Source: Bacillota bacterium (lineage in GTDB: Bacteria; Bacillota; DTU030). From it: 40,283 nt of DNA. The translations under genes were made by a program, and so were the position numbers. The notes under the pieces are model-generated. The model made no database searches. It was not told the DNA's origin and saw only the letters and a list, made by a program, of their open reading frames with translations. This document shows, piece by piece, positions 3,985-5,142 of this stretch; positions within the stretch are counted from its first letter, which is position 1, and each line of letters starts with the position of its first letter. Location: assembly GCA_012518435.1 (NCBI GenBank), contig JAAYSG010000040.1, positions 1-40,283 on the forward strand, given 5' to 3'.

Positions 3985-4248
3985 AGATTTTCCTCCTTTT
4001 CAGAAGATATCCCCAGGCGCTAAATATAATGTATTTCCCACCACCCCCATGCTCCTTCATTTTTCGGCCCCTGTTTCTAATCGTTATATTCTGTTTTACC
4101 TTTCCTATTTCCTGCCGGGGGTGGTCTAAGATTGGCCCCGGTTGCCACTGGCCCCGGGGGGGGATCTGTGCCATGTCCGGGGGACGGGCTGGGGAGGCGG
4201 GATGCTGCCCAGGGGATGGGGGGGAGGAAAGTCATCACATACCTTAAT

Positions 4249-4293
4249 AATATTAATATATAAATTGACAATATTAATATTAGCTGCTATGAT
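4249..4293 (+). promoter_or_regulatory. Sigma-A-type promoter TTGACA-N17-TATGAT with two palindromic AATATTAATAT boxes 21 bp apart
   Basis: TTGACA 4265-4270, TATGAT 4288-4293; repeats at 4249-4259 and 4270-4280 flank/overlap the -35. Confidence 0.65.
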
Positions 4294-4705
4294 TATTGTA
4301 AATAGGAAGGAGGTGCCTATAATTAATAGTTATAGTGTTCCCGATAAATGCCCTGTCTGCGGGCATGAACTCCTTATCAACAAGTTATCCTGTAGCCACT
4401 GTGCGACCAAAATCGAAGGAGAGTTTTCCACCTGTAAATTTTGCCGCCTGCCAGATGAACAAAGGGAGTTTATCGAGGTTTTTATCAAGTGTCGGGGTAG
4501 TATAAAAGAGGTGGAAAGGGAGTTGGGTATCTCTTATCCCACGGTGCGGAGCCGCCTTGATTCTGTGCTTACCGCCCTGGGCTACAAGGTGGCGGAGGGG
4601 GAGACGGGGGCTAGGGTTCGGGCCACGGAGGTTTTGGCCGCCTTGGAAAGGGGAGAGATATCGGCAGCAGAGGCGGCGCAGCGCTTGAAAAAAGGGGAAG
4701 GATAA
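4289..4705 (+). CDS. DUF2089-type zinc-ribbon/HTH protein (true start probably downstream of 4289)
   Basis: CPVCGHELLINKLSCSHCATKIEGEFSTCKFCRLPDEQREFIEVFIKCRGSIKEVERELGISYPTVRSRLD; AAGGAGGTG at ~4307-4315. Confidence 0.8.
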   Translation: MIIVNRKEVPIINSYSVPDKCPVCGHELLINKLSCSHCATKIEGEFSTCKFCRLPDEQREFIEVFIKCRGSIKEVERELGISYPTVRSRLDSVLTALGYKVAEGETGARVRATEVLAALERGEISAAEAAQRLKKGEG

Positions 4706-4725: not shown

Positions 4726-5142
4726 ATGGGCGATGATAAGAAGCGGATTATGCGGATGATAGAGGAGGGAAAAATTACTGCGGATGAGGGGATGGAATTA
4801 CTGACGGCCCTGGAGGAATCATCCCGGGGGGAGGAACGGGGTGCAGCCCTGAGGAAACGTTTTTTGCGGGTGCGGGTTTCCTCGGAAAAGGGAACCAAGG
4901 CCAATGTTAATATCCCCCTCAGCCTGCTAAAGGTGGTTTCCAAACTTTTGGGCTTTGCCACGGCCCTTATTCCCACTGAGGCCCGGCGGGAACTGCAGCA
5001 GCAGGGTATAGACCTGGCCAAGATTGATTTTGAGGAATTGGTACACCTAGTTGAACAAGGTTTAAGTGATGGCAAGCTAGTTGATGTGGAAACGGAGGAT
5101 GAGAAGGAGGGCTTTACCAAGGTTGAGGTGTATGTGGAATAG
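4726..5142 (+). CDS. SHOCT-like/YvlB N-terminal domain-like protein
   Basis: KKRIMRMIEEGKITADEGMELLTALEE N-terminal repeat-like segment; 20 nt after the DUF2089 gene. Confidence 0.65.
   Translation: MGDDKKRIMRMIEEGKITADEGMELLTALEESSRGEERGAALRKRFLRVRVSSEKGTKANVNIPLSLLKVVSKLLGFATALIPTEARRELQQQGIDLAKIDFEELVHLVEQGLSDGKLVDVETEDEKEGFTKVEVYVE

What the first reader, a model, noticed from the sequence alone, without database searches (positions are those of the whole stretch)
4249..4330. DUF2089 gene: annotated ATG is the -10 box; translation probably starts at a non-canonical ATT/ATA codon
TTGACA-N17-TATGAT is consensus-like; the ATG at 4289 is part of TATGAT and precedes any transcript from it. 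The Shine-Dalgarno GGAGGT (4309-4314) lies 7 nt before in-frame ATT 4322 (ATA 4319 is adjacent), with no ATG/GTG/TTG at proper distance. A rare infC-like start may limit or autoregulate expression.
Basis: seen in the sequence. Interest (0 to 1): 0.6.

Follow-up and report, generated by a model that had tools for sequence, protein, structure and literature searches.

The report
Regulator gene starting at ATT codon
A small DNA-binding regulator gene in this bacterium appears to begin with the rare start codon ATT instead of ATG, and about two dozen relatives across its phylum also begin with ATT, ATC or ATA, so this looks like a conserved way of keeping the protein scarce rather than a sequencing quirk.

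Summary
The promoter TTGACA-N17-TATGAT, the in-frame ATG inside its -10 box, the Shine-Dalgarno (SD) AAGGAGGTG 4307-4315 and the ATA 4319/ATT 4322 codons are all present. Across 170 DUF2089 orthologues the start lies mostly about 8 codons before the first zinc cysteine. In the clade nearest the window that codon is ATC, ATT or ATA in 25 genes, 22 of them exactly 8 nt after the GGAGG core; with the window (start one codon earlier) and one later find the set is 27. Sisters have TTG, ATG or GTG there. Two orthologues carry an in-frame TAA directly before ATT/ATC, so no ATG, GTG or TTG can start them. The operon's partner gene starts with ATG almost everywhere. The genome's own infC starts at ATC. 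The promoter carries an operator-like array (TTRA-N5-TTAA boxes, 21-bp phase, last box containing the -35) shared across the family and perfect only once in this genome. Likely function: autoregulated transcription plus weak, IF3-discriminated initiation keeps the regulator below its partner, as in sigR-rsrA. The start assignment is comparative; IF3 control is inferred. No published DUF2089 case was found in the library searched.

The parts
4244..4256 (+). Operator-like box 1: TTAATAATATTAA (TTAA-N5-TTAA)
   Evidence: pattern conserved upstream of DUF2089 genes
4265..4277 (+). Operator-like box 2: TTGACAATATTAA, 21 bp from box 1, containing the -35 hexamer
   Evidence: boxes 21 bp apart 68 times and 42 bp apart 24 times in 170 upstream regions, essentially never in shuffles
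4265..4270 (+). -35 hexamer TTGACA
   Evidence: conserved in relatives
4288..4293 (+). -10 hexamer TATGAT with TG before it; contains the in-frame ATG 4289-4291, which is probably not the start
   Evidence: same TATGAT in L002, where the gene's frame has stops
4307..4315 (+). Shine-Dalgarno AAGGAGGTG (its GTG 4313-4315 is in frame but inside the SD)
   Evidence: about -19 kcal/mol with a generic anti-SD
4319..4321 (+). ATA, alternative non-canonical start (5 nt from GGAGG)
   Evidence: aligns with ATG of L002
4322..4324 (+). ATT, most likely start codon (8 nt after GGAGG)
   Evidence: Same 8-nt spacing as 22 of 26 ATH codons found at the family start position
4322..4705 (+). DUF2089 regulator: zinc ribbon, helix-turn-helix, SHOCT-like C-terminus
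   Evidence: PF22747 1e-14, PF09862 6.3e-26; the SHOCT-like C-terminus is by the family description, not by a match here
4726..5142 (+). Operon partner with SHOCT-like domain, ATG start
   Evidence: PF22746 1.3e-10; ATG start conserved

Best explanation
The DUF2089 gene is transcribed from the TTGACA-N17-TATGAT promoter (start expected near 4300, inferred). It is translated from a non-canonical AUH codon, most likely ATT 4322, read by initiator fMet-tRNA and positioned by a near-perfect extended Shine-Dalgarno. This is an inherited trait of a DUF2089 clade in this phylum, where the start codon interchanges among ATC, ATT, ATA, TTG, ATG and GTG (shown comparatively). Because AUH codons initiate weakly and are discriminated against by IF3 (established for infC and others), the regulator should be made at a small fraction of its mRNA's potential, while the co-transcribed SHOCT-like partner starts at a normal ATG and is made in excess. 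The protein probably also binds the 21-bp-phased TTRA-N5-TTAA boxes over its own -35 and regulates its own transcription (inferred). Shown: sequence anatomy, conservation of the start position, the two decisive orthologues, and the operator array. Inferred: actual initiation, low yield, IF3 control and autoregulation.
For: Start position: codon -8 (8 codons before the first Cys of the zinc ribbon) is ATG 53, TTG 27, GTG 20, ATC 12, ATT 9, ATA 5 in 170 orthologues; the ATC count includes L055, which starts at an ATG one codon later. In the 59 nearest genes it is only TTG, ATC, ATG, ATT, ATA, GTG, ACG plus the window's AAT, whose start lies one codon earlier. That column has no stop, whereas columns -9, -10, -11 and -13 hold 5, 2, 3 and 6 stops. 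Every Leu codon there is TTG and every Val codon GTG, the signature of a start codon. Decisive cases: L182 GAG GTG AGT TAA ATT and L185 GAG GTG AAT TAA ATC; their near relatives L180 and L181 keep the SD and ATC/ATA while the two codons between vary freely. L198 has AAGGAGGAGAACAAA-ATT with no GTG in the SD. Spacing: 22 of 26 ATH codons at -8 are exactly 8 nt from GGAGG, the mode of the NTG orthologues too. L091, L096 and L188 lie in single-contig genomes, so this is not a draft-assembly error. Controls: partner gene B has ATG in 20 and GTG in 1 of 21 ATH-class loci; this genome's infC has in-frame TGA in its SD and then ATC. Promoter: boxes in 97% of the nearest 61 upstream regions, 2.18 per region against 0.08 in shuffles; the double box is perfect only at this locus in the genome. 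The gene upstream is divergent, so there is no co-directional gene to read through from. Precedents: PMC13009471 (AUU/AUA starts of cvfC1, ccpN, infC with extended SD, about 10% of AUG in poor medium for the three sites tested), PMC5472188 (sigR GTC, IF3).
Against: No ribosome profiling, N-terminal or TSS data. In the window an in-frame GTG (4313) lies inside the SD with a weak AGGA 5 nt upstream, and similar GTGs are present in most ATH orthologues; six have an ATG at -9 or -10 (L002, L095, L092, L097, L162, L193) and in L088 the GTG has its own SD, so only L182 and L185 are free of any rival. The window departs from the clade by one extra codon, leaving ATA versus ATT open. The congener has ATG at the aligned ATA position, though only 2 nt after GGAGG (a second AAGGA lies 8 nt before it). 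A weak hairpin may cover the start (z -0.43, not significant).
Confidence: 0.82

Rival explanations
1. Translation starts at the in-frame GTG 4313-4315 embedded in the SD; the conserved Ile/Leu/Met at the supposed start is just a hydrophobic residue.
For: GTG is in frame here and in most clade members (43 of 59 at -11); in the window a weak AGGA lies 5 nt upstream (-4.2 kcal/mol); in L088 an SD lies upstream of the GTG.
Against: The GTG would have to escape its own SD duplex; most clade members have no SD upstream of the GTG (scores about 3); L020/L168, L169 and L170 have TGA in place of it, and L182 and L185 have TAA after it; residues between GTG and -8 are random and include stops; Leu codons at -8 are only TTG.
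Confidence: 0.1
2. Translation starts at ATG 4289 (MIIVNRKEV...), on a leaderless or longer transcript.
For: It is the only in-frame ATG near the domain.
Against: It lies in the -10 box, has no SD (-0.1 kcal/mol), and in the congener the gene's frame has TGA and TAA there. The upstream gene is divergent.
Confidence: 0.03
3. The start is ATA 4319 rather than ATT 4322 (a sub-case of the best explanation).
For: ATA aligns with ATG of L002 and is 5 nt from GGAGG, an acceptable spacing.
Against: Clade spacing is 8 nt (22 of 26), matching ATT; the I-N-(S)-Y alignment also matches ATT with a one-codon insertion.
Confidence: 0.22
4. A sequencing or assembly error has changed an original ATG.
For: The window genome is a draft in 107 contigs.
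Against: ATC/ATT/ATA recur at the homologous position in some 25 further genomes, several of them single-contig; the infC of the same genome shows the same kind of start.
Confidence: 0.02

Closest known systems
infC (IF3) AUU/AUC/AUA start codon
   Same: Strong extended SD followed by a conserved AUH codon; start type conserved over wide distances; found in the same genome at ATC
   Different: infC encodes the factor that does the discriminating; DUF2089 is a putative DNA-binding regulator, and its start alternates with TTG/ATG/GTG between lineages
ccpN (AUA) and cvfC1 (AUU) of Staphylococcus/Bacillus (PMC13009471)
   Same: Regulator or zinc-finger genes with extended SD and conserved AUH start; cvfC1 is first in its operon; reporters gave about 10% of AUG in poor medium
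   Different: Different genes; here no reporter data, and homology of cvfC1 to DUF2089 was not tested
sigR-rsrA of Streptomyces (GTC start, IF3-repressed; PMC5472188)
   Same: First gene is a regulator with a non-canonical start, second gene is its partner, giving partner excess
   Different: GTC rather than AUH; sigma/anti-sigma pair; that DUF2089 and its SHOCT-like neighbour interact is inferred only
DUF2089 gene contexts of PSP-like envelope-stress systems (PMC11237479)
   Same: ZnR + HTH + SHOCT-like architecture, SHOCT-like neighbour
   Different: The passages read there describe domains and neighbourhoods, not the start codon or operator

Membership tests
DUF2089 (PF22747 zinc ribbon + PF09862 HTH) | Significant match to both domains in order | tested here: met
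   E 1e-14 (residues 21-52 of the ATG 4289 frame) and 6.3e-26 (54-100), both above the curated cut-offs
Genes with an AUH (infC-like) start codon | AUH codon at SD-appropriate distance with no better-placed ATG/GTG/TTG | tested here: met
   Window: SD -19.2 kcal/mol, ATT 8 nt from GGAGG; only an SD-embedded GTG and SD-less upstream ATG/TTG compete
Genes with an AUH (infC-like) start codon | Non-canonical start conserved among orthologues, with sequence that forbids canonical alternatives in some | tested here: met
   27 genes including the window; L182 and L185 have in-frame TAA directly before ATT/ATC; at least 5 ATH/NTG changes on the tree
Genes with an AUH (infC-like) start codon | Initiation shown by N-terminal sequencing or ribosome profiling, and IF3-dependent | not testable with these tools
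   Needs experiment
Autoregulated transcription factor | Conserved operator-like sites overlapping the promoter of its own gene | tested here: met
   21-bp-phased TTRA-N5-TTAA boxes, -35 inside the last; sole perfect double site in the genome
Autoregulated transcription factor | The protein binds that operator | not testable with these tools
   Needs EMSA or footprinting

The most novel reading that the evidence does not exclude
DUF2089 operons are a phylum-wide regulatory class in which a 21-bp-phased operator autoregulates transcription and a conserved AUH start codon couples regulator synthesis to IF3 or initiation fidelity, setting a regulator-below-partner ratio as in sigR-rsrA; the start codon toggles between AUH and UUG/AUG among lineages.
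Probability: 0.5. Interest if true: 0.72.

Novelty: new member of a known kind. Interest (0 to 1): 0.62.

Why it matters
Conserved AUU/AUC/AUA starts are known for very few bacterial gene families (infC, pcnB, ccpN, cvfC1). A further regulator family that uses them, in a clade where sisters have TTG or ATG instead, gives a natural experiment on why such starts are kept. It also means that standard gene callers, which allow only ATG/GTG/TTG, are likely to misplace the N-terminus or lose the gene (L182 and L185 have no legal start before the zinc ribbon). The operator array gives a first testable DNA target for DUF2089.

Tried and rejected
ATG 4289 as start: rejected (in the -10 box, no SD, stops in the congener's frame). 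GTG in the SD as start: disfavoured by two TAA-containing orthologues, TGA-containing TTG orthologues and lack of SDs before it. Sequencing error: rejected by recurrence. Chance: rejected by the codon spectrum of the -8 column and the 8-nt spacing mode. Rfam leader or riboswitch: none found. Structured start region: not significant. NCBIfam gave no family for either protein. A wider regulon: no second perfect double box in the genome; the two other 2-mismatch sites are no more than the control pattern gives. The class-wide search covered 13 genomes, of which only 3 carry the gene.

Full report
Check of the observation. The scan counts the promoter as 11 of 12 with a TG before the -10. The reading frame encodes a DUF2089 protein, zinc ribbon plus HTH, followed by a SHOCT-like protein starting at ATG 4726. 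The neighbour upstream is divergent.

Where orthologues start. I collected orthologues from genomes of the same phylum and from named assemblies and read the codons before the first zinc cysteine. Most of the family starts at or within one codon of position -8. At -8 the codon is ATG 53, TTG 27, GTG 20, ATC 12, ATT 9 and ATA 5 times; one ATC, in L055, is not a start because an ATG follows at -7. In the 59 genes nearest the window the column holds nothing but ATG and single-base neighbours of ATG, apart from the window, whose start is one codon earlier; there is no stop in it, while the spacer columns before it contain stops. If -8 were merely a hydrophobic residue, CTN or TTA codons should occur beside TTG, and GTH beside GTG; none does.

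Decisive cases. L182 reads GAG GTG AGT TAA ATT AAA TAC and L185 GAG GTG AAT TAA ATC AGA TAC. The TAA lies in frame directly before the AUH codon, so neither the GTG in the SD nor anything upstream can start the protein, and no ATG/GTG/TTG follows before the zinc cysteine. Their near relatives L180 and L181 keep the SD and ATC/ATA while the two spacer codons change freely. L198 has a strong SD without GTG followed by ATT. Conversely, L020/L168, L169 and L170 have TGA within the SD and TTG at -8, which confirms the position. Several AUH genes (L091, L096, L188) are in single-contig genomes.

Spacing. In 22 of 26 genes with ATH at -8, the codon begins 8 nt after the GGAGG core, which is also the mode of the NTG genes. 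By that rule the window's start is ATT 4322; ATA 4319 would be 5 nt away. Pairing energy with a generic anti-SD is -19.2 kcal/mol before ATT, -4.2 before GTG 4313 and -0.1 before ATG 4289. In the congener L002 the same TATGAT is present, but its ATG is out of the gene's frame, which holds TGA and TAA there.

Controls. The SHOCT-like partner gene in the same operons has ATG at its start in 20 of 21 AUH-class loci and GTG in one, so these genomes do not use AUH starts at random. The genome's own infC, the classic AUH gene, reads GGG AGG TGA CAC ACT ATC AGT, an in-frame stop followed by ATC. On a tree of 150 proteins (few columns, many weak forks) at least five changes between AUH and NTG are needed: an old trait with repeated switches.

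Promoter and operator. The upstream regions share boxes TTRA-N5-TTAA, on average 2.18 per region in the nearest 61 genes against 0.08 in shuffles; pairs are 21 bp apart 68 times and 42 bp apart 24 times in the whole set. The regions are listed. In the window the boxes are 4244-4256 and 4265-4277; the second contains the -35. The double box occurs perfectly only here in the 1.7-Mb genome. I infer that DUF2089 binds these boxes and controls its own promoter. The same conservation supports the promoter being real, which puts ATG 4289 upstream of the transcript.

Mechanism. An AUH codon with a strong SD initiates at roughly a tenth of AUG in S. aureus reporters in poor medium (PMC13009471), and IF3 represses a GTC start in sigR so that SigR stays below RsrA (PMC5472188). 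The DUF2089 operon has the same layout: regulator first with a weak start, partner second with ATG. The most likely function is to hold the regulator low relative to its partner. This step is inference.

Relation to what is known. DUF2089 has been described as ZnR-HTH-SHOCT in envelope-stress-like contexts (PMC11237479). None of the seven papers holding the word DUF2089 has a title or abstract about its translation start, and a search for related terms found nothing; most subscription papers are not in the library. AUH starts as such are known, so this is a new family within a known kind. Statements on infC and pcnB beyond the cited papers rest on general knowledge.

Uncertainty. The GTG in the SD, ATGs at -9 or -10 in six orthologues, and ATA against ATT in the window remain open without experiment. 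I put 0.82 on an AUH start here (about 0.6 ATT and 0.22 ATA).

Noticed in passing
window 4244-4277: 21-bp-phased TTRA-N5-TTAA box array over the promoter, shared by DUF2089 genes across the phylum; candidate DUF2089 operator, unique in this genome as a perfect double box.
   Followed up: partly
L086 (own genome contig C49, infC): infC starts at ATC after an in-frame TGA within its SD.
   Followed up: yes
L167, codon -8: One orthologue in a single-contig genome has ACG at the start position with ATC one codon before; its start is unclear.
   Followed up: no
L189 and L193 (same genome, G504): Two DUF2089 paralogues in one genome, both with AUH at -8, one with an added ATG at -9.
   Followed up: no
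window 4317-4337: CTATAATT-AAT-AGTTATAG inverted repeat could fold over the ATA/ATT start codons; folding not better than shuffles.
   Followed up: partly
window 4296-4323: A second promoter-like match TTGTAA-N16-TATAAT overlaps the SD and start; probably chance.
   Followed up: no
relatives in the window's class: DUF2089 is patchy: only 3 of 13 genomes of the class carry a match, so loss or transfer is probably common.
   Followed up: no
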